From IMG/VR virus record IMGVR_UViG_3300034417_000027, positions 1 to 20,056 of that record: a DNA stretch of 20,056 nucleotides. One strand, given 5' to 3'. This document shows positions 10,402 to 19,830 of this stretch, one piece after another. The stretch is from a virus. The notes under the pieces were generated by a model. The model worked only from the letters and a program-made list of their open reading frames with translations. It had not been told where the DNA came from and did no database searches. The position numbers were made by a program, and so were the translations under genes. Position 1 is the stretch's first letter; each line of letters starts with the position of its first letter.

Positions 10402-12149
10402 TGGCGCCCGCGCTCGCGCAGCCCTGGCGGCCGCCGGTCGTCCCGCGCACCATCGACGGGACCAGTCTCCTCATCGGCGGGCGCGAGACCACCGACACCG
10501 ACCTCCGCGCGCGCTCGCTGCGCTGTGAGTTGATCCTTGATGCGCGCGGGAAATTCTCCTGTCAGCTGATCGCGCCGCCCGTGCGCCCGACGATCGACAT
10601 GGATGTCCTGTTCACGCTCGAGGGCACGCCGGTTTTCGGCGGGGTCGTGGTGGAGCTCGCGCAGAACGCCGACCTCTGGACGGTGACGGCGGCCGACAAC
10701 CTGGCGATCTGCGATGGCCTCCTCATCAACGCGGTCTCACCGGCCGGCACGCTGAAGGCGGTGCTCGACTGGATGGTGGCGACGGCTCTCGGCGCGTATG
10801 GCTTTACCGTCGATCCCGCGATGACGGCCGCGCCCGGGCCGGCCGTGCCGATGATCGCGTTCCCGTTCCAGAGCTACGCCGCCGCGCTGAAGCAGCTCGG
10901 GACGATCAGCGGGTGGACCTGCGTCATCTCGCCGACGCGCGTGATCCACATGTATGCCGGCGGCGCGGTCCCGGCGCCCTGGCCCATCGACGAGGTCACC
11001 GACACGATCCAGAGCCTGACCGCGCGCACCTCGCGGGAGGGCCACGCCACGCACGTCTGGGTGCGGTTCGGCCAGGGCGCGCCGACCGATAAGACGTGGA
11101 CGATCGTCGGCGACGGCACGGCCGTCAGCTGGCAGGCGCCGTATTACGTCGCGACGCCGCCAAACGTCGTGACGGTGAACGCGGTCACGATGCCGATGTT
11201 CCCGTATCCAGATCCGGGCTGGTCCTGGGAAACCAACGGGCCGGTCGGCATCCTGCACGCGCCGCCCGCGGACCCGCCGCGCACGGCCGCCGATACGATC
11301 AGCGTCCTGTTTCAGGCCGCCTGGCCGTCGGTGGTCGTCGCGGTCGACTTTACGTATCCGCTCTATACCGGCGTCGTGATCGACTATCCGGACATCTTCG
11401 ACGTCGCGACCGCGCAGGCGCTCGCCGACGGCGAGCTCGCGCGCCGCCAGGGCTTCCCGCAGAAGTTCACGCTGCGGACGCCGCGCGTCGGCCTGCAGCC
11501 CGGGCAGACCGCGGCGCTCGACGTCCCGCGGCTGGGCCTCGATACCGCGGCGCTGGTCACCGGCGTCCGGCTCACGCATGCGAACAACGTGGGCCCGAGC
11601 GGCACGCCCTGGTGGGCCTTTGACGTGGAGCTCGTCGAGGCAAACGCGAGCCGGGGCAACTGGCTAACCTTCTGGTCCCAACTAAAGGCCGGCGGCGGAT
11701 CCGGCGGCGGCACCGGCTCGAGCGTCACCGGCACGATCCCGCCGAGCCCGCCCGGCGGCGGCGGGACCGGGAGCGCCGCGGACTATGCGACCTGGCCGCT
11801 CGGCGGCGACCATGACGCCGGCTATCCGAGCGCGACGGGTGCCGACTGGCAGGGCATCGCGAATGGCTGCTTCCCGGTGACGCCGGCGACCTTCACCGGG
11901 CGGACGTGGACCGTGTACGCGACGGTCAAGCGGCTGATGGGATCCGGCACGTTCCGCCTGGCGCTCTACAACGCCGCCGGGTCCAGCATCGCGACCTCCG
12001 CGGTCGTGACGTTCGCCAGCGGTGAGTTTGCCGCGGTGAGTTTTACGGCGCCCGTCACGCCGGGGCAGACGTACCACCTGCGCGGGCTCACGTCGAACGC
12101 GAGCACGATCGTCGGCACGACCGGCTATCTCGAGGCGGTGCGCACATGA
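10401..12149 (+). CDS. Baseplate hub / tail tip protein with C-terminal accessory domain
   Basis: A 582-residue protein directly after the tape measure gene. Residues about 18-420 fit a phage hub fold of the gp27/gpD kind: an N-terminal strand region ending LEGTPVFGGVVVELAQNADLWTVTAADN, then the CDGLL...GTLKAVLDWMVATALGAYGF helix, and the late segment QALADGELARRQGFPQKFTLRTPRVGLQPGQTAALDVPRLGL followed by LVTGVRLTH. These are the usual trailing parts of hub proteins. A natural Gly/Ser linker (GGGSGGGTGSS at 431-441) and a second Pro/Gly-rich stretch lead to a separate domain of about 120 residues (460-582) rich in predicted strands. This looks like a small jelly-roll, perhaps sugar-binding. 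No separate distal tail protein is seen, so this gene may carry most tail-tip functions. The start overlaps TMP by TGATG and the end overlaps the next gene by ATGA. Confidence 0.75.
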   Translation: MAPALAQPWRPPVVPRTIDGTSLLIGGRETTDTDLRARSLRCELILDARGKFSCQLIAPPVRPTIDMDVLFTLEGTPVFGGVVVELAQNADLWTVTAADNLAICDGLLINAVSPAGTLKAVLDWMVATALGAYGFTVDPAMTAAPGPAVPMIAFPFQSYAAALKQLGTISGWTCVISPTRVIHMYAGGAVPAPWPIDEVTDTIQSLTARTSREGHATHVWVRFGQGAPTDKTWTIVGDGTAVSWQAPYYVATPPNVVTVNAVTMPMFPYPDPGWSWETNGPVGILHAPPADPPRTAADTISVLFQAAWPSVVVAVDFTYPLYTGVVIDYPDIFDVATAQALADGELARRQGFPQKFTLRTPRVGLQPGQTAALDVPRLGLDTAALVTGVRLTHANNVGPSGTPWWAFDVELVEANASRGNWLTFWSQLKAGGGSGGGTGSSVTGTIPPSPPGGGGTGSAADYATWPLGGDHDAGYPSATGADWQGIANGCFPVTPATFTGRTWTVYATVKRLMGSGTFRLALYNAAGSSIATSAVVTFASGEFAAVSFTAPVTPGQTYHLRGLTSNASTIVGTTGYLEAVRT

Positions 12150-14005
12150 CGGCCCGCCGCGACGACGGGATCGTGCTGCTGCTGATTCTGCTCGGCCTGC
12201 TGCTGCTCATGCTCTGTATCGCGCGGCCGGCGCATGCGCAGGTGACGATCGCGGATCAGATCGTGGCGCGGCAGAAGGCGGTCATCGGGACCACGACGGC
12301 CTCGAGCTCGCCGCTGACGGTCGTGGGCCTGCCGGGGAGCGGCGACATCCTGCGGGTCGGCGCCGGCGGCAGCATCGGGATCGGGTCGATCGGGCCGGCG
12401 GACATCCCGGCCGTCTTCACACGGCGCGACCTCAATGAAGCCATCAGCGGCGCCTGGTCGTTTAACGGCGCGCCGCTGACGGTGAGCGGCGGCACGCTGG
12501 CGCTGACGAATGCGACCAGTAATGTGATCACGTTTCCGGGCGCGTCGGCGACGCTGCCGACCATCGGCGCGCGCAGCCCGGGCACGCGCCTGCTGCTCTG
12601 GCCGGATACGGCGCCGACCGCGCTGGAATACGCGATCGGCATGGGGCCGTCGACGCTCTGGACGTCGGTGCCCGCGGGCGCCCGCGTGGCGTGGTTCGCG
12701 AGCGATGGCGATGCGGCCAGCGAGACGGGCACGCCGGGCGAGGACCTGCTCGCGGAACTGACGAGCGTGCGCAATTTCCTGCCGGGCGTCGGCTACAGCG
12801 GCAACCTCGGCCTGCTGAATCGCAAATGGCTGACGTTGCACGCGGCGGAACTGTGGGTGGAGACCCTCGTCGCGCAGGAGACGATCGCGACCATTGGCGG
12901 GCGGATCCTGGTCGGGCCGACGACGCAATTGACGACGGATATCCCGGCGGCCTCGGGCTCGATCAACGTCAAACACAACAACCTCGTGTCCGGAGACGTG
13001 ATCTACCTCGAGGCGAACGGCCGCGTGGAGTTCATGCGGGTCACGAGCAGCGCCGGCGCGGGCACGCCGCTCGGCGCGTTTGCGTATACCGTGACGCGCG
13101 ATCTCGACGGATCGGGGGCGAATGATTGGGCGGCCGGGGATGCGGCGTTCAATACCGGCCAGGCCGGGTCGGGCTTTATTGACCTGTATTCGATCCGCGG
13201 CACCAAGGCCGCGACCGAGCTCGGGCCGACCATCGTCGGCAACGTGCGGACCTCGACGGCATTCAATGGCTGGGCGCCGCGCTGGGCCATCGGCAACCTC
13301 CAAGGGCTTTACGGCTACAGCAGCACGACCTACGGATCCGCGTTCGGCGATCCGTCGGCCACGTTTGTCGCGATCGACGCGACCAACGGGTTTCGCGTCC
13401 TCAACGGCGGCACGACGATCGGGCAATGGGACACGGCCGGCGTTGTCACGATCGGTCCGGCGACGTCGAGCACGACCGGAAAGATGGTGATCGACAGCGA
13501 CAGCGTCGACGTGTCCTATCGCGGATCGACGCTCTTTTCGATTTACAGCAGCTCGGGCTCGAGCCTCGCCCAGTTCAACACGCCGCTGTGGACGATGAGC
13601 GGCCTCTATACGCCCTCGATCACCTGGCTGAGTAGCAGCATGACGATTGCGACCTCGCCGACCTTCTCGAATATCACATTGCAGCCGGGCGCGGCGGCGC
13701 CGACGAGTGGCGCGGTGTTGCCGGGCCTGGACGCGGCGTCGCCGCTCGGGAGTGCGAGTAAGCGCTGGAATAATGTGCACCTGGTCCTGCCAGTGCAATC
13801 CGCGAGTGGGGCCTCGGCCGCGTCGCCCGGATCGGGATTCCCCTATCTCGTGACGGGTGACCGGACGGAGCTGTCGCGCCTGGGCTACTACTGCGGGTCG
13901 ACGACCTATAACTTTCCCATTCAAGCGAATTCCGCGTGCGTGAGCGGCTACGCGCTGATCTCGTTTCATTGCGGGGTCGTGAGTGCGTTGGTGTGTTCTC
14001 CGTAA
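12146..14005 (+). CDS. Tail-fibre-like protein with N-terminal signal peptide
   Basis: A 619-residue protein. Residues 1-32 are basic then strongly hydrophobic (IVLLLILLGLLLLMLCIARP) and end in AHA|Q, a standard Sec signal peptide with a likely cut after A31. The rest is Ser/Thr/Gly-rich with short strands, as in phage fibres and adhesins, and contains two copies of a fibre-type motif: LGLLNRKWLTLHAAEL (about 221-236) and LGSASKRWNNVHLVLP (534-549). The C-terminal 40 residues hold four Cys (583, 598, 609, 617) although the mature chain before them has none. It starts by ATGA overlap, with GAGG ten bases upstream. A signal peptide is unusual for a virion part assembled in the cytoplasm. It may instead be an exported cell-surface or envelope protein, or the hydrophobic segment may stay uncut. 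Fibre-like character is inferred. Confidence 0.7.
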   Translation: MTARRDDGIVLLLILLGLLLLMLCIARPAHAQVTIADQIVARQKAVIGTTTASSSPLTVVGLPGSGDILRVGAGGSIGIGSIGPADIPAVFTRRDLNEAISGAWSFNGAPLTVSGGTLALTNATSNVITFPGASATLPTIGARSPGTRLLLWPDTAPTALEYAIGMGPSTLWTSVPAGARVAWFASDGDAASETGTPGEDLLAELTSVRNFLPGVGYSGNLGLLNRKWLTLHAAELWVETLVAQETIATIGGRILVGPTTQLTTDIPAASGSINVKHNNLVSGDVIYLEANGRVEFMRVTSSAGAGTPLGAFAYTVTRDLDGSGANDWAAGDAAFNTGQAGSGFIDLYSIRGTKAATELGPTIVGNVRTSTAFNGWAPRWAIGNLQGLYGYSSTTYGSAFGDPSATFVAIDATNGFRVLNGGTTIGQWDTAGVVTIGPATSSTTGKMVIDSDSVDVSYRGSTLFSIYSSSGSSLAQFNTPLWTMSGLYTPSITWLSSSMTIATSPTFSNITLQPGAAAPTSGAVLPGLDAASPLGSASKRWNNVHLVLPVQSASGASAASPGSGFPYLVTGDRTELSRLGYYCGSTTYNFPIQANSACVSGYALISFHCGVVSALVCSP

Positions 14006-14010
14006 GGGGG
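14004..14010 (+). promoter_or_regulatory. Ribosome binding site choosing ATG 14018
   Basis: AAGGGGG (14004-14010) sits seven bases before ATG 14018 and only four before the in-frame GTG at 14015, so the ATG is the better start. It also overlaps the stop of the fibre-like gene (TAA 14003-14005). Confidence 0.55.
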
Positions 14011-14017
14011 TTGTGTG

Positions 14018-14473
14018 ATGCGCTCTGTGGTGATCGCGCTGCTGCTGATCGCGGCGCCCGTGGCGGCGCAGACGTCGACGCCGGGCACCTATATCGATCG
14101 CTGGACACTCTCGACGACGCCGACCTTCGTCGGGCGCATCCAGATTGCCTCGGCGTCGACCGCGCGGATCGTGCTCGAGGAGCCGCCCGCGACCGCGAAA
14201 CACGAGACGCGGTTTGCGCTGGCGCAACGGGTGCTGAATGAGCCGCAGTTCCTGGCGATCCGCCTGGCGCCGATGATTGCGGCGTCGGTGCCGGTGACGA
14301 GCACCGACCACGACCAGAACCCGGCCACGCCGCCGATCGTGGACACGACCTGGACGGACGAGCAGATCCAAACCCTGATGACGCAACAGTGGAATTTGTT
14401 TGCGTCCGCGTTCGTCCCGGCGACCGCCCCGCCGCTGACGGTGATGCAGGGCGCCGCGCCGGTGCGGCGATGA
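14018..14473 (+). CDS. Small exported protein of unknown function
   Basis: A 151-residue protein. Residues 1-18 (MRSVVIALLLIAAPVAAQ) form a clear signal peptide with likely cleavage after VAA. The mature part begins with TSTPGTYIDRWTLSTTPTFVGRIQIASAS and then has a helical section RFALAQRVLNEPQFLAIRLAPMIAASVPV, and TDEQIQTLMTQQWNLFASAFV near the C-terminus. This last layout resembles small proteins seen in phage tail regions, where a helix of the type ALAQRVLNEP precedes an acidic DEQI...W helix. I cannot name the family. No Cys is present, and the C-terminus is Pro-rich (ATAPPL). ATG at 14018 was chosen on the ribosome binding site. It overlaps the next gene by ATGA. A role at the virion or in the envelope is equally open. 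Confidence 0.68.
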   Translation: MRSVVIALLLIAAPVAAQTSTPGTYIDRWTLSTTPTFVGRIQIASASTARIVLEEPPATAKHETRFALAQRVLNEPQFLAIRLAPMIAASVPVTSTDHDQNPATPPIVDTTWTDEQIQTLMTQQWNLFASAFVPATAPPLTVMQGAAPVRR

Positions 14474-14832
14474 GGATCCGGCTTGGCCTGCAGGCGTTCG
14501 TCCTGGGAACAGTGATCCTCGGCGGATCGCTGTCGGCGCAGCCGTCGGCGCCGGGGCCTGGCGCCCCGCCGGGTTCGCCCGCGTCGGCGCTCGCCGAGTG
14601 CGATCGCTTGCGGGCCGAGAACCTGAAATTGCGCGCCCAGGTGCTCGACCTCCAGCGCGCGCTGGCGCAGCTGCAGCTCGAGACCGAAGCCGCCCGGCTG
14701 CAGGCCGACCGGCAGCAGCTCGAGGCCACCTTTCGCGCGCTGCTGAAGCCCGCGGCGACCGACGTGTTCGATTGGTCCTCGCTCACCTTCGGCCCGCCGA
14801 AGCCGATTCCGGCGCCGGCCACGCAGCCGTGA
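14470..14832 (+). CDS. Small exported coiled-coil protein (spanin-like?)
   Basis: A 120-residue protein. Residues 1-24 (MRIRLGLQAFVLGTVILGGS plus LSAQ) are a signal peptide or membrane anchor. A Pro/Gly/Ala-rich stretch (PSAPGPGAPPGSPA) comes next. It is followed by a long coiled coil of about 55 residues (CDRLRAENLKLRAQVLDLQR, ALAQLQLETEAARLQADRQQ, LEATFRALL) and a Pro-rich tail (FGPPKPIPAPATQP). An N-terminal hydrophobic helix with a periplasmic coiled coil is also the layout of an inner-membrane spanin, but the Ala-X-Ala-Gln cleavage motif argues for a processed, soluble protein. The start ATG at 14470 overlaps the previous stop, and the stop overlaps the next ATG (TGATG). The reading frame continues upstream but those codons belong to a shadow of the preceding gene. 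Function unknown. Confidence 0.68.
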   Translation: MRIRLGLQAFVLGTVILGGSLSAQPSAPGPGAPPGSPASALAECDRLRAENLKLRAQVLDLQRALAQLQLETEAARLQADRQQLEATFRALLKPAATDVFDWSSLTFGPPKPIPAPATQP

Positions 14833-17800
14833 TGTACGTCTCGCACTCACAGGGCTGGTGGCACGCGCAGGTCTCGCCCGATGGGACGCTCGTCGCCGCC
14901 GGCAATGGCCGCATCAAGCTCCTGGCAAATCAGACGGAGTTCGACCTCGGGCCCGGCTACGCCCCGCAGTGGATCCAGGCCGACGCGCTGCTCATCGCGC
15001 AGCAGGACGAGACGCACCAGATCATCGACCTGGGCGGCCGCATCCTCGAGCAGCTCGGGCCGCTCGGCGCGAACCAGCAGCGCGCCGCGATCGGCCGGTA
15101 TGCGCTCGCCGGCATGAAACGGACGGACAACCGCACGGTCCTCACGAACTTCCGGCCCGAGATCGCCGACGCCACGCTGCCAGGCCTCGCCGGGTCGCAC
15201 GTCGCGTACGTGACGCTGCGCGAGCAGGGCCGCGCCGACTACTGGCCCGATCGCCTGATCCTCGACGACCAGCCGCTGTGGACGTTTCGTGAGGTGACGC
15301 GATTTGACCCGCGCACCGACCAGCCGGTCTGGACCTTCAGCGGTGGGACCGGCTTCCCGTCGCTGCTCGCCTCGGGCGCGATCGCGTGGCTGGACGGCCG
15401 CGCCAACTACGGCCGGTATGCGGCAGGCCTCCAGGTGGACGCGCTCTCGGTCGATCCCGCGCGCCGCGAGTCGCCGCCGGTGCTCGTCCGCATGGCGCAC
15501 CAGGTCTGGGTGCTCAGCCATCAGGACGATCGGCTGCTGTTTCGCCCGTGGGGCCAGACGCACGGCCAGCACTGGCCGATCGACGTGCCTGAGAACGGCG
15601 GCACGAACGCCGATCCCGGCACGCACGGCCCGCACGGGGTCGGCCTCGATGAGACGCATGCGCGTCTGGCCTGGAACGATTCGGATGGCTATCTGCACAC
15701 GCTGATCGTGGACGACAGCACGCCGATCGATTTGACGATCCCGCTCGAGCAGCCGACGCGGCCCGAGCCGCCAGTCATCATCATCGAACCACCGATCGAG
15801 CCACCGATTGATCCGCCCGTCGAGCCACCGATCGACCCGGAGCCGCCCATGCCAGATGAAGCCCTGACCGCGCGCGTCGCGGCGCTCGAGCAGCACGTCG
15901 CGATCCTCGACGCTCAGGTCCGCGACCTCGAGGCGCAGGCGATCCGCGACGGCCAGACGGTCGGCCTGCAGGATCACTGGCGCGGCTATGTGCGCTCGCC
16001 GGATGCGCCGGTCGCGATGGCGCCGGATGCGGCCGGCCTCGGTGCCTGGGAGCAGTGGCGCCTGGTGCGCGTCGCGCAGCCTGATCCGATGCAGGACCGG
16101 CCGCGGCCGCCGCTGCCCGTGCCGGGCGTCGTCTGGCCCACGCCAGGCGCGGCCGATATCGGGATGAACCGCGAGTGGCTGGCGCAGGTCCGCGGCATCG
16201 GGATCGCGACGATCCGCACGAATGTCTCGATCCTGCGCAACCGCGAGAACGTGCGTGCCCAATGTCTCGCGGTGCTCGAGAGCGGCCTGGCGCTGCTGCC
16301 GATCCTCGAGTGGCCGTACGACACGACGGATCCGGCCGTCGCCGTCGAGTTCCTGCGGTGGTTGCTGGACGAGACCGGGGTCGGGATCGTCGAGCTGCAG
16401 AACGAACCCTGGATTCTCGATGACGTCACCGGCCACGAATACCTGCGCGTGGCCGCGCCGCTGGCCGCGGCCGCCGAGGCTCACGATCCCGACACGCGCG
16501 TCGTGCTCGCGATGGATCTGTTCGATCACAGCTCTGGACATTCCCGGCTCTGGCCTGGTGTGCAGGACGTGATCGCCTGCATCGCCGAGAGTCCGCGCCG
16601 ACTGGCCGCCATTCATAACTACCGCAATCCGCAGCCGGCGGACTGGTCGGCGTGGGGCTCGCGCCAGGCCGAGCACGAGGCGATCTGCGCCGCCCTCGGG
16701 CATGCGCGGTATGTCATCACGGAAACCGGGTGGAAGCCGAGCGAGGGCGAGCGCCAGGCGTCCGGCGCCGATCACATCCGCGAGCTCGAGATCCTCGGCG
16801 CGCAGGGGATCCCGATCGCGGTGATCTACGCGCACCTTGAGGACCCGCACGATCGCGCGTATGACTTCGGGCTCTTCGCGCTCGGCGCCGATCCGAATGG
16901 GCCGCTCGTGCCGCGGCCGGCCGCCGAGGCGCTCGGCGCGTTCCTGCCGCAGCTGCCGGTGCTCCCGACCGAGCCCGCCCCGGGCCCGCTGCCGGACCTG
17001 CCGCTGACCGCGCTGGGCTGCGTCGACGGCGTCCACTACGTGCAGGCCTGGCTCGGCGACGCGGAGCCGAGCATCACGGCCGAAGCCACGGAGGCCGAGG
17101 AATGGGAGCAGTGGGGGCTTGCCTGGCTGACGCGCGGCGCCGCGCCGACGGTCGCGCTAATGGCCGCCAATGGCTGTTGGCTGACCGCGGAGCTCGACGC
17201 CACGCTGACGCTGCGCCAACCTGCCACTGAGGCGCCCGGCCCGTGGGAGACGTGGACGCTCGAGGCCGTCGACGCGACGCACGCGTCGCTGCGCTCCCAT
17301 CACGGCGGGTACCTGCGGCCCGAAGGCGGCGGCGGGAGCACGGTCGCGGCTGACGGCGCGGCCGCGGGCCCGTGGGAGGTCTTCGCGTTCAGTCTGGACC
17401 TGACCGATCCGATTGCGCCGCCGACTGCCGGCGGCCTGCCCTCGATGGCCGCGGCGCTCGACGTCCGCGGGGAGTTCCTCTGCGCGCCCGGCTTCGAATG
17501 GGCGTTCATGTATCCCGGGTGGTCAGCGGAGGACCGGCGCGCGTATCGCGTCTGGTGCCGGGACCAGGGCCACACGCATCTGTTCTTCGCGCCGTGGGGC
17601 GCGTATCGCAACGAGCCGGCGTTTGACTTCAGGCGCGATCCGATCGGCTTTCGCGCGCTCATCGACGAGGCGCAGGCGGAAGGCTTCGTCGTCGTGCTCT
17701 TCTGTCTGACCGACTCGCTGCCGGGCGACGAGGGCTACACCGAAGATGAGGCGCACCGCTTCATCCGCGACTGGCTCGCGCCGTTCAATGACATCGTGCG

Positions 17801-18482
17801 GGCCTGGGTACTCGGCTGGGAGTGCGTGCAGATCAACGCGGGGTTTGATCGCCATGTGAAGGGCGATCCGGTCGTGCAGACGATCGTCCGCGAGTTCTCG
17901 CAGCCGCTGACACCGGAGGAGGCCGCGTTCAATCGGCGGCGCGTGCAACGCGATCAGCAGGAACCCGGCGACCATATGGGCGTGCCCGTGCCGCAGCCCG
18001 ATCCGCGCGGTTATCAGCCGCTGCCGCCCGGGAGCGATCGGCTGTACTGGCTCTGGAGCGGCGACGCGCAGCATCGCATCCTCCAGACGATGCGCGCGAC
18101 CTTCGGGCCCGATCGGTTGCTGGGCATTCACTACACGCCTGAGCGCATCACCGGCTGGCCGGACTACGGCCACACCAACACCGACCCGCGCGGCGAGCCC
18201 GATTGGTGGCACCGCGCCGGCGCGACGGTGAACTGGATCCTGTATCAGCGATCGCCCGATGAAGCCGACGACGAGACGGTCGCGCATACGACCGGCGGAC
18301 GGACATCAGACGGCGTCGACATCGGCGACGCGAATCGCATCGCCGGCGCCTGCACCTGGCAGCTGGCTGGAAAGTTCTTCACGGCCTTCGAGCAGTCGCG
18401 GGCTCTCGCGCGCTGCCAGTGGCTGCGCGAGCACTACGACACGGCGGTCCTTAGCGGGAACGGCAACCTCGGGGAGTTCTGA
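14832..18482 (+). CDS. Giant multidomain glycoside-hydrolase protein, tail-spike or exoglycosidase candidate
   Basis: A 1216-residue protein starting by TGATG overlap. Domains as seen: residues 1-305, repeated strands with W/D motifs (HAQVSPDGTLVAAGNG, ARLAWNDSDGYLHTLIVDD), likely a beta-propeller; 313-341, Pro-rich linker (PPIEPPIDPPVEPPID); 342-374, coiled coil; 379-413, one fascin-like lobe (GYVRSP...AWEQWRLVRV); 433-705, a TIM barrel of clan GH-A type with VELQNEP (acid/base E525) and YVITETGW (nucleophile E631), plus IHNYR before it and a GIPIAVIYAHLE strand after; 727-856, three further fascin-like lobes; 880-1205, a second barrel-like domain (AFMYPGWSAEDRRAY, VLGWECVQIN, LLGIHYTPERI, TVNWILYQRS) where E997 and E1104 could be catalytic. 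The closest named groups are GH5/GH39-like hydrolases, but the exact family is unknown. The likely job is cleavage of a host or soil polysaccharide. No signal peptide. Confidence 0.78.
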   Translation: MYVSHSQGWWHAQVSPDGTLVAAGNGRIKLLANQTEFDLGPGYAPQWIQADALLIAQQDETHQIIDLGGRILEQLGPLGANQQRAAIGRYALAGMKRTDNRTVLTNFRPEIADATLPGLAGSHVAYVTLREQGRADYWPDRLILDDQPLWTFREVTRFDPRTDQPVWTFSGGTGFPSLLASGAIAWLDGRANYGRYAAGLQVDALSVDPARRESPPVLVRMAHQVWVLSHQDDRLLFRPWGQTHGQHWPIDVPENGGTNADPGTHGPHGVGLDETHARLAWNDSDGYLHTLIVDDSTPIDLTIPLEQPTRPEPPVIIIEPPIEPPIDPPVEPPIDPEPPMPDEALTARVAALEQHVAILDAQVRDLEAQAIRDGQTVGLQDHWRGYVRSPDAPVAMAPDAAGLGAWEQWRLVRVAQPDPMQDRPRPPLPVPGVVWPTPGAADIGMNREWLAQVRGIGIATIRTNVSILRNRENVRAQCLAVLESGLALLPILEWPYDTTDPAVAVEFLRWLLDETGVGIVELQNEPWILDDVTGHEYLRVAAPLAAAAEAHDPDTRVVLAMDLFDHSSGHSRLWPGVQDVIACIAESPRRLAAIHNYRNPQPADWSAWGSRQAEHEAICAALGHARYVITETGWKPSEGERQASGADHIRELEILGAQGIPIAVIYAHLEDPHDRAYDFGLFALGADPNGPLVPRPAAEALGAFLPQLPVLPTEPAPGPLPDLPLTALGCVDGVHYVQAWLGDAEPSITAEATEAEEWEQWGLAWLTRGAAPTVALMAANGCWLTAELDATLTLRQPATEAPGPWETWTLEAVDATHASLRSHHGGYLRPEGGGGSTVAADGAAAGPWEVFAFSLDLTDPIAPPTAGGLPSMAAALDVRGEFLCAPGFEWAFMYPGWSAEDRRAYRVWCRDQGHTHLFFAPWGAYRNEPAFDFRRDPIGFRALIDEAQAEGFVVVLFCLTDSLPGDEGYTEDEAHRFIRDWLAPFNDIVRAWVLGWECVQINAGFDRHVKGDPVVQTIVREFSQPLTPEEAAFNRRRVQRDQQEPGDHMGVPVPQPDPRGYQPLPPGSDRLYWLWSGDAQHRILQTMRATFGPDRLLGIHYTPERITGWPDYGHTNTDPRGEPDWWHRAGATVNWILYQRSPDEADDETVAHTTGGRTSDGVDIGDANRIAGACTWQLAGKFFTAFEQSRALARCQWLREHYDTAVLSGNGNLGEF
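15768..15854 (+). repeat. Proline-rich codon array in the giant protein
   Basis: This stretch codes for residues 313-341, a run of PPIEPPIDPPVEPPIDPEPP-like units, with the 12-base string CGAGCCACCGAT repeated at about 15797 and 15821. It separates the putative propeller from the coiled coil and glycosidase barrel and is a probable flexible or rigid linker. Confidence 0.7.
15839..15842 (+). promoter_or_regulatory. Possible internal ribosome binding site ahead of ATG 15849
   Basis: GGAG lies six bases before an in-frame ATG (15849, residue 340), exactly where the Pro-rich linker ends and the coiled coil begins (MPDEALTARVAALEQ). Translation from here would give an 877-residue product without the propeller. 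Chance is possible as this sequence also codes for EPPMP. Confidence 0.3.
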
Positions 18483-18493
18483 CGGAGGCGTCC

Positions 18494-18670
18494 ATGATCA
18501 GTCTGGTCCTGACCATCGCGATCGTCGGCGTGCTCGTGTACCTGCTCGAGACCTACGTCCCGATGCCGCAGCCGTTCAAGATCGCGATCCGGGTGATCGT
18601 GGTGGTGCTGCTGGTGCTGTGGATCGTGCGGCTCTTCGGCCTCGACGTGCCGCTCCCGTCGCCGCGCTGA
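18494..18670 (+). CDS. Small membrane protein, Thivi_2564-like
   Basis: A 58-residue protein with two membrane segments (MISLVLTIAIVGVLVYLL and IAIRVIVVVLLVLWIVRL) joined by a short ETYVPMPQPFK loop, and a short polar tail. The order of hydrophobic helix, Y.PM..PFK, and a V-rich helix ending in LW...FG is like the Thivi_2564 family of small membrane proteins, often found in phage and prophage sequences. The family's function is not established. GGAGG (from about 18484) sits just upstream, and the start lies 11 bases after the stop of the giant protein. In position it corresponds to a lysis gene, so a holin-like or anti-holin-like role is possible but not shown. Confidence 0.68.
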   Translation: MISLVLTIAIVGVLVYLLETYVPMPQPFKIAIRVIVVVLLVLWIVRLFGLDVPLPSPR

Positions 18671-18887: not shown

Positions 18888-19775
18888 TCACGCATCATCG
18901 TCGTCGGCGTCCCCCCGTCGCGGGTCGGTGAAGAGCTCGCCCTGTACTTTCTCCAGGTCGTACACGTCCACGGCGGTCGGCTTCAGGTTCTCGTCCATGT
19001 AGGCGACACACTCGATGCGCAGCGGCCCATCATGCGCAATGAGTCGATAGAGCTTCACTGGATCCTCACCCCGATAGGTGTAGGACACGCGCGTGCCGTC
19101 CAAGAGATACAAAAACCCGCGATTGGTGCTCTTGGTCACCGAATTCAGCCGGACGACGAGCGAGGTCCGTTGCGTGCTGACGGTGACCGACTCCGTCACC
19201 TCAAAGTAGGGGCGCTCGGCCACCTCGACGCGCTCGCGAAGGACCACCCCGTCGGCGGATCGTGCTTCGATTTCGGCGGCATCGATGTGACCAACTCGCA
19301 AGGGGCTGACGATCTTGGCTAGGTCGGCATCGAGCGTCCCCGCCTTGAACACCTCGTACACATGCAGCGGCATTTCAATCGACACGTTCTGCGAGTTCGT
19401 CACCGTGATCGTGTTCGGCGTCTGACTAATCTGCTCGCGATAGGGTTCATTGCGAACGTGCTTCTTGACGCGGATCAGCCGGATGATGGTCGCCACGATC
19501 GCCGTCGCCGCGCCACCAATCACGCCGGCGGCCTGAATCACGCCCGCGTTCTCGTTCAAGTACGTCCACACATCGAGCGCGAACAGCACCGAGCCGGGCT
19601 TGACGGCCACAATCCGGAGGTGGTGTGTGGAGGAAGGGTCCTCGAAGGCTGCGAGCTTGCCGTAGGCGCTGGCAAAGCCTTGCAGGACGGGCACCGCATC
19701 CTGCAGCGACATCGTGCCGTCCTTGACGTTGGGACCCTCGTAGCGAAGGCTGATGTCGACCTGCTCGCGTGGCAT
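18888..19775 (-). CDS. Conserved-looking protein of unknown function with central hydrophobic segment
   Basis: A 295-residue protein on the opposite strand, converging on the phage operon. The N-terminal part has DISLRYEGPNVKDGTMSLQD then AVPVLQGFASAYGKLAAFED, and a strand-rich HHLRIVAVKPGSVLFALDVW block. A hydrophobic stretch at 78-102 (AGVIQAAGVIGGAATAIVATIIRLIRV) is followed by a basic KKH. The second half has TNSQNVSIEMPLHVYEVFK, RLNSVTKSTNRGFLYLLDGTRVSY and ECVAYMDENLKP, ending in an acidic tail (DADDDDA). These blocks have the feel of a well-conserved family, but I cannot name it. The base composition is less GC-rich than the late genes. The ATG at 19775 (MPREQ) is preferred over the TTG at 19784, although the upstream Shine-Dalgarno is weak. 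Options include an accessory cargo (moron) gene or host flank. Confidence 0.72.
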   Translation of the reverse strand: MPREQVDISLRYEGPNVKDGTMSLQDAVPVLQGFASAYGKLAAFEDPSSTHHLRIVAVKPGSVLFALDVWTYLNENAGVIQAAGVIGGAATAIVATIIRLIRVKKHVRNEPYREQISQTPNTITVTNSQNVSIEMPLHVYEVFKAGTLDADLAKIVSPLRVGHIDAAEIEARSADGVVLRERVEVAERPYFEVTESVTVSTQRTSLVVRLNSVTKSTNRGFLYLLDGTRVSYTYRGEDPVKLYRLIAHDGPLRIECVAYMDENLKPTAVDVYDLEKVQGELFTDPRRGDADDDDA

Positions 19776-19830
19776 GGGGCGCAAGAATACACCGACTTCC
19801 AGCCACCCCCGCGGCGACGTCCTGTGGGAC

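What the first reader, a model, noticed from the sequence alone, without database searches (positions are those of the whole stretch)
14832..18482. 1216-residue protein combining propeller, coiled coil, fascin-like lobes and two barrel-like domains
Clan GH-A catalytic signatures are visible in the first barrel (NEP at E525, TETG at E631), and a second barrel-like region follows the fascin-like lobes. I do not recognise this architecture from a known phage depolymerase or tail spike. It is a candidate virion-borne or released enzyme acting on a polysaccharide, and the second barrel may be an undescribed glycosidase family.
Basis: partly seen in the sequence, partly recalled or inferred. Interest (0 to 1): 0.78.

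Follow-up and report, generated by a model that had tools for sequence, protein, structure and literature searches.

The report
Two-barrel sugar-cutting phage tail protein
This phage gene, the last of a tail operon, appears to encode a sugar-binding protein with two predicted enzyme barrels, probably used to cut through the polysaccharide coat of the host; one barrel looks like a common glycosidase clan and the other matches no catalogued family that I could search.

Summary
The 1216-residue ORF is real: codon usage is phage-like, and its last 444 residues are shared (34-45% identity) with single proteins of two other uncultivated phages. It closes a conserved tail operon (tape measure, tail proteins, two small secreted-looking proteins, this gene, a Thivi_2564 membrane protein). 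Residues 432-705 fit a clan GH-A barrel: in a shallow-alignment AlphaFold2 model Glu525 (NEP) ends strand 4 and Glu631 (TETG) ends strand 7, and the closest structures are GH39, GH5 and GH1. The 'fascin-like lobes' are a beta-trefoil closest to carbohydrate-binding family CBM92 (profile E 7e-14), with Trp-Glu in each lobe. The C-terminal barrel is the family's conserved core: Glu997 and Glu1187 are invariant and probably end strands 4 and 7. No relative was found in Pfam, NCBIfam, PHROGs, sequenced phages or PDB sequences. The GH-A barrel is absent inside both relatives; one encodes a similar barrel as a separate downstream gene. The propeller could not be confirmed; catalysis, substrate and virion location are inferred. 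Best reading: a tail-associated polysaccharide depolymerase of unusual build, a new variant of a known kind.

The parts
14832..18482 (+). CDS, 1216 aa, putative tail-associated polysaccharide-degrading protein
   Evidence: translation; homologues in L004 and L006; syntenic tail operon
14832..15749 (+).
   Evidence: no Pfam match; corresponding N-termini of relatives also without a match
15750..15854 (+). Pro/Glu/Ile-rich linker (307-341)
   Evidence: sequence; the same kind of linker lies in P0002 and P0003
15858..15947 (+). coiled coil (343-372), probable oligomerisation stalk
   Evidence: V349-L352-V356-L359-V363-L366 heptad spacing, read from sequence
15954..16085 (+). orphan trefoil lobe (375-418) with W406-E407
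   Evidence: resembles the other window lobes, shuffle z 3.0-5.3
16125..16946 (+). GH-A type TIM barrel (432-705)
   Evidence: AlphaFold2 model and PDB matches; separate-gene counterpart L006:9125-9910
16404..16406 (+). E525, candidate acid/base (NEP, end of strand 4)
16722..16724 (+). E631, candidate nucleophile (TETG, end of strand 7)
17004..17402 (+). CBM92-like beta-trefoil (725-857), Trp-Glu in all three lobes
   Evidence: profile vs PDB: 7zoh E 7e-14, 7zoi E 3e-13; WE at 758/759, 805/806, 848/849
17442..18452 (+). second barrel (871-1207), conserved core of the family, no catalogued family found
   Evidence: alignment; model; fold searches; no family match
17820..17822 (+). E997 (GWE), candidate acid/base of barrel 2
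   Evidence: invariant in three phages, end of predicted strand 4
17847..18041 (+). insert after strand 4 of barrel 2 (about 1006-1070), present in L006, absent in L004
   Evidence: alignment
18390..18392 (+). E1187 (AFE), candidate nucleophile of barrel 2
   Evidence: invariant in three phages, end of the last predicted strand, which is strand 7 if the strand inside the insert is set aside
18494..18670 (+). Thivi_2564 family small membrane protein, next gene
   Evidence: NF041949, 41.3 bits against a cut-off of 33

Best explanation
A tail-associated polysaccharide depolymerase of a tailed phage. The N-terminal part and coiled coil would attach and oligomerise it. The CBM92-like trefoil would hold glucan-type chains through Trp-Glu pockets. 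The GH-A barrel would hydrolyse a beta-linked host surface polysaccharide with retention, using E525 as acid/base and E631 as nucleophile. The C-terminal barrel would be a second catalytic domain, the one common to the family, probably using E997 and E1187. Shown here: ORF, homology, synteny, trefoil family, order of strands and position of the Glu residues in models. Inferred: attachment, trimerisation, catalysis, substrate, virion location.
For: Tail operon synteny across three phages: tape measure, P4 and P1 homologues in both relatives, P5 and the two small genes in L004. GH-A signature residues in the right place; VIA Z 13.7 over 223 residues to PslG, a GH39-type exopolysaccharide glycosidase, then GH5 and GH1. 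Trefoil: CBM92 E 7e-14, with the Trp-Glu motif that binds glucose in CBM92 (PMC11039641). Barrel 2: Foldseek GH164 E 2.5e-4, VIA best Z 8.5 to GH140, then GH5, GH42 and GH164; invariant Glu pair.
Against: Models are low confidence (mean pLDDT 49.5 and 48.5), with 2-4 sequences. Many TIM barrels that are not glycosidases also match the first barrel (epimerases). Barrel 2 lacks the Asn before its strand-4 Glu that is usual in clan GH-A (Trp instead), and its strand 8 is not resolved. No catalytic or virion evidence exists.
Confidence: 0.6

Rival explanations
1. Receptor-binding tail protein in which one or both barrels have lost catalysis and only bind sugar.
For: Low similarity to any characterised enzyme; the GH-A barrel is dispensable, as it is absent inside both relatives; barrel 2 has Trp before the strand-4 Glu.
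Against: Both Glu residues are kept in both barrels, and polar residues at strand ends are invariant at about 50% identity.
Confidence: 0.2
2. A released enzyme, made late and freed at lysis, that degrades matrix polysaccharide around the cell; not part of the particle.
For: It is next to a small membrane protein and secreted-looking small genes; one relative carries a GH-A-like barrel as a separate gene.
Against: No signal peptide on this protein (sequence); it lies in the tail operon in all three phages; it has a coiled-coil stalk as in fibres.
Confidence: 0.2
3. Barrel 2 is not a glycosidase at all but another TIM-barrel protein.
For: Best VIA Z is only 8.5, near the typical best for models without clear matches; mean pLDDT 49.5; aldo-keto reductases and isomerases appear lower in the Foldseek list.
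Against: The top of both lists is glycosidases; the domain is fused to a sugar-binding-type trefoil in all three phages.
Confidence: 0.15

Closest known systems
CBM92 (CpCBM92A/B, PDB 7ZOI/7ZOH)
   Same: beta-trefoil with a Trp-Glu motif per subdomain, appended to glycosidases
   Different: in a phage tail operon; the two relatives lack the Glu in the third lobe; the window adds a fourth, separate lobe; ligand unknown
Clan GH-A glycosidases, nearest GH39-type PslG and GH5
   Same: predicted barrel, NEP Glu on strand 4, Glu on strand 7, conserved Arg and His-x-Tyr
   Different: no sequence match to any Pfam, NCBIfam or PDB family; no Trp seen on the presumed strand 8
GH164 (Bs164) and GH42
   Same: GH164 is the top Foldseek match of barrel 2; insert between strand 4 and the next helix; candidate Glu pair probably on strands 4 and 7
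   Different: Trp, not Asn, before the strand-4 Glu; about 11-14% identity; the L004 member lacks the insert; low-confidence model
Phage tail depolymerases (beta-helix, propeller, triple helix)
   Same: modular, probably oligomeric, at the end of a tail operon, polysaccharide target
   Different: two TIM barrels in one chain; in the DepoScope survey only 10 of 984 phage depolymerase-fold hits were TIM barrels (PMC11326577)

Membership tests
Clan GH-A (residues 432-705) | (beta/alpha)8 barrel | tested here: met
   strand/helix alternation, most of the barrel core pLDDT 60-86; VIA Z 13.7 to PslG; strand 1 not resolved
Clan GH-A (residues 432-705) | acid/base Glu after Asn at the end of strand 4, nucleophile Glu at the end of strand 7 | tested here: met
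   N524-E525 and E631; conserved in L006
Clan GH-A (residues 432-705) | retaining hydrolysis of a beta-glycoside | not testable with these tools
   needs an assay
A named GH family for residues 432-705 | sequence match to the family | tested here: inconclusive
   no Pfam, NCBIfam or PDB sequence match; CAZy models not on hand
CBM92 (725-857) | beta-trefoil with significant sequence similarity | tested here: met
   profile E 7e-14 to 7zoh, fascin next at 1e-12
CBM92 (725-857) | Trp-Glu binding motif in each subdomain | tested here: met
   W758-E759, W805-E806, W848-E849; two align with the CBM92 motif
CBM92 (725-857) | binding to beta-1,6-glucan or glucose ends | not testable with these tools
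   needs binding assays
GH164 (871-1207) | Glu pair on strands 4 and 7, insert after strand 4 | tested here: inconclusive
   E997 and E1187 invariant, insert in two of three members; model too weak to number the strands securely
GH164 (871-1207) | sequence similarity to family members | tested here: not met
   no match to Bs164 or any other GH by phmmer or profile search of PDB sequences
Beta-propeller (1-306) | repeated four-stranded blades | tested here: inconclusive
   no profile match; not modelled

The most novel reading that the evidence does not exclude
Residues 871-1207 found a new clan GH-A-like glycosidase family, so far seen only in uncultivated phages and kept in the tail operon with its own CBM92-like module, while a second GH-A barrel moves between a separate gene and a place inside the chain.
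Probability: 0.35. Interest if true: 0.65.

Novelty: new variant of a known kind. Interest (0 to 1): 0.5.

Why it matters
TIM-barrel enzymes are rare among known phage depolymerases. A two-barrel tail protein with a glucan-binding-type module would widen the known kinds of enzyme that phages carry against host polysaccharides. The comparison of three phages also suggests that enzyme modules are swapped: a GH-A barrel is a separate gene in one phage, part of the chain in another and not found in a third.

Tried and rejected
Whole-chain and single-domain searches of INPHARED and PLSDB gave nothing beyond trefoil-only hits and noise. Peptide-seed scans of genome contigs found no relative. A pattern hit, L005, was chance. 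The near-identical contig L001 is the same virus population and carries no extra information. Profile comparison of the two barrels with each other found no relationship, with too few sequences to decide. A last GH-A profile scan of viral contigs found nothing. Mixed-domain alignments were discarded as misaligned. The viral structure library gave no significant match for barrel 2. PHROGs knows none of the relatives' copies. Literature searches for fascin-like or CBM92 modules in phages found nothing relevant.

Full report
Setting. The window is a complete IMG/VR record of 20,056 bases, a linear fragment of a tailed phage. It holds a portal protein, capsid protein, head-tail adaptor, major tail protein and tape measure, two larger tail genes, two small genes, the target, a small membrane protein and a convergent gene. 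A second contig, L001, is 99.8% identical and is the same virus population.

The ORF. It runs from an ATG at 14832 to a stop ending at 18482, 1216 residues, with a TGATG overlap to the gene before. An in-frame GTG at 14598 would lengthen it, but it lies inside the upstream gene. Codon third-position GC matches the phage structural genes.

Relatives. Pfam, NCBIfam, PHROGs, INPHARED and PLSDB gave no relative of the whole chain or of the barrels. A degenerate motif from the C-terminal domain found L004, and a profile from those two found L006. L004 carries an 880-residue protein, 34% identical over 773-1216. L006 carries a 951-residue protein, 45% identical over 773-1212. Both have an N-terminal domain, a Pro-rich linker, a further domain of about 100 residues in the middle (it looks PKD/Ig-like by eye, unverified: no Pfam match), a trefoil and the C-terminal barrel. 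Neither has the GH-A barrel inside. The family may be wider than the three members found, since the collection scans rely on short seeds.

Synteny. Tape measure, P4 and P1 have homologues in both relatives, and P5 and the two small genes in L004. L006 also has a small membrane protein after its copy, as the window has; the window's is a Thivi_2564 family member. In L006 a separate 261-residue gene lies between the two. It resembles the window's GH-A barrel (pairwise E 2e-4 in a one-against-one comparison) and keeps the Asn-Glu, His-x-Tyr and Thr-Glu motifs. A barrel of this kind may therefore move between a separate gene and the chain; common descent is likely but not certain, and the direction is not known.

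First barrel. The AlphaFold2 model of 426-870 has a mean pLDDT of 48.5, but 60-86 in most of the barrel. Its strands place N524-E525 at the end of strand 4 and E631 at the end of strand 7, as in clan GH-A. The best structural matches by VIA-align are PslG (GH39-type, Z 13.7, 3.9 angstrom, 223 residues), then GH5 and GH1. Foldseek also lists sugar epimerases with the same barrel, so the fold alone does not decide; the Glu positions do most of the work.

Trefoil. A profile of the three trefoils matches CBM92 structures at E 7e-14 and fascin at 1e-12. In CBM92 each subdomain binds glucose with a Trp-Glu motif (PMC11039641). The window has Trp-Glu in all three lobes and in an extra lobe before the GH-A barrel. 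That extra lobe resembles the window's others (z 3.0-5.3 against shuffles). It follows a coiled coil directly, so three chains might each give one lobe to a shared trefoil; this is speculation.

Second barrel. Residues 871-1207 are about half identical among the three phages. The model is weak (pLDDT 49.5, pTM 0.53), with alternating strands and helices. Foldseek ranks GH164 first (E 2.5e-4, but poor superposition, TM 0.35); VIA gives GH140 Z 8.5, with GH5, GH42 and GH164 close behind. Z of that size is common for models without a clear match, so this is support, not proof. If the predicted strand inside the long insert is set aside, E997 ends strand 4 and E1187 ends strand 7. Bs164 uses Glu160 and Glu297 on strands 4 and 7 and has a helical insert after strand 4, as GH42 does (PMC7105311). 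The window and L006 have an insert at that place; L004 does not. E889 of the GFEW motif is not conserved in L006 and is not a catalytic candidate.

Reading. The best-supported explanation is a tail-associated polysaccharide depolymerase. TIM barrels are only 10 of 984 depolymerase-fold hits in one phage survey (PMC11326577), so two in one chain is unusual. Attachment, oligomerisation, catalysis and substrate are inferred. The undescribed-family idea for barrel 2 is open: no listed family matched, but CAZy models were not available and the model is weak.

Noticed in passing
window 12146-14005, 14015-14473, 14479-14832 (+): Three consecutive tail-operon genes begin with signal-peptide-like stretches (for example MTARRDDGIVLLLILLGLLLLMLCIARPAHAQ on the fibre-like protein), which is odd for virion proteins; all three have homologues in L004.
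   Followed up: partly
L006:4438-6261 (+) and L004:4783-6495 (-): Both relatives carry a similar protein of about 570-607 residues just before the target homologue (apparently an IPT/TIG-like N-terminus and a lectin- or lyase-like domain, by eye); the window lacks it.
   Followed up: no
L006:11388-12545 (-): A tyrosine-recombinase-like gene lies close to the tail operon, suggesting a temperate relative; recognised by eye only.
   Followed up: no
window 18888-19784 (-): Convergent 298-residue gene matching phrog_3243, function unknown (E 4.5e-16).
   Followed up: partly
window 12125-14386 and 14847-17036 (-): Long antisense open frames with a shifted GC pattern, best read as shadows of the GC-rich sense genes.
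   Followed up: yes
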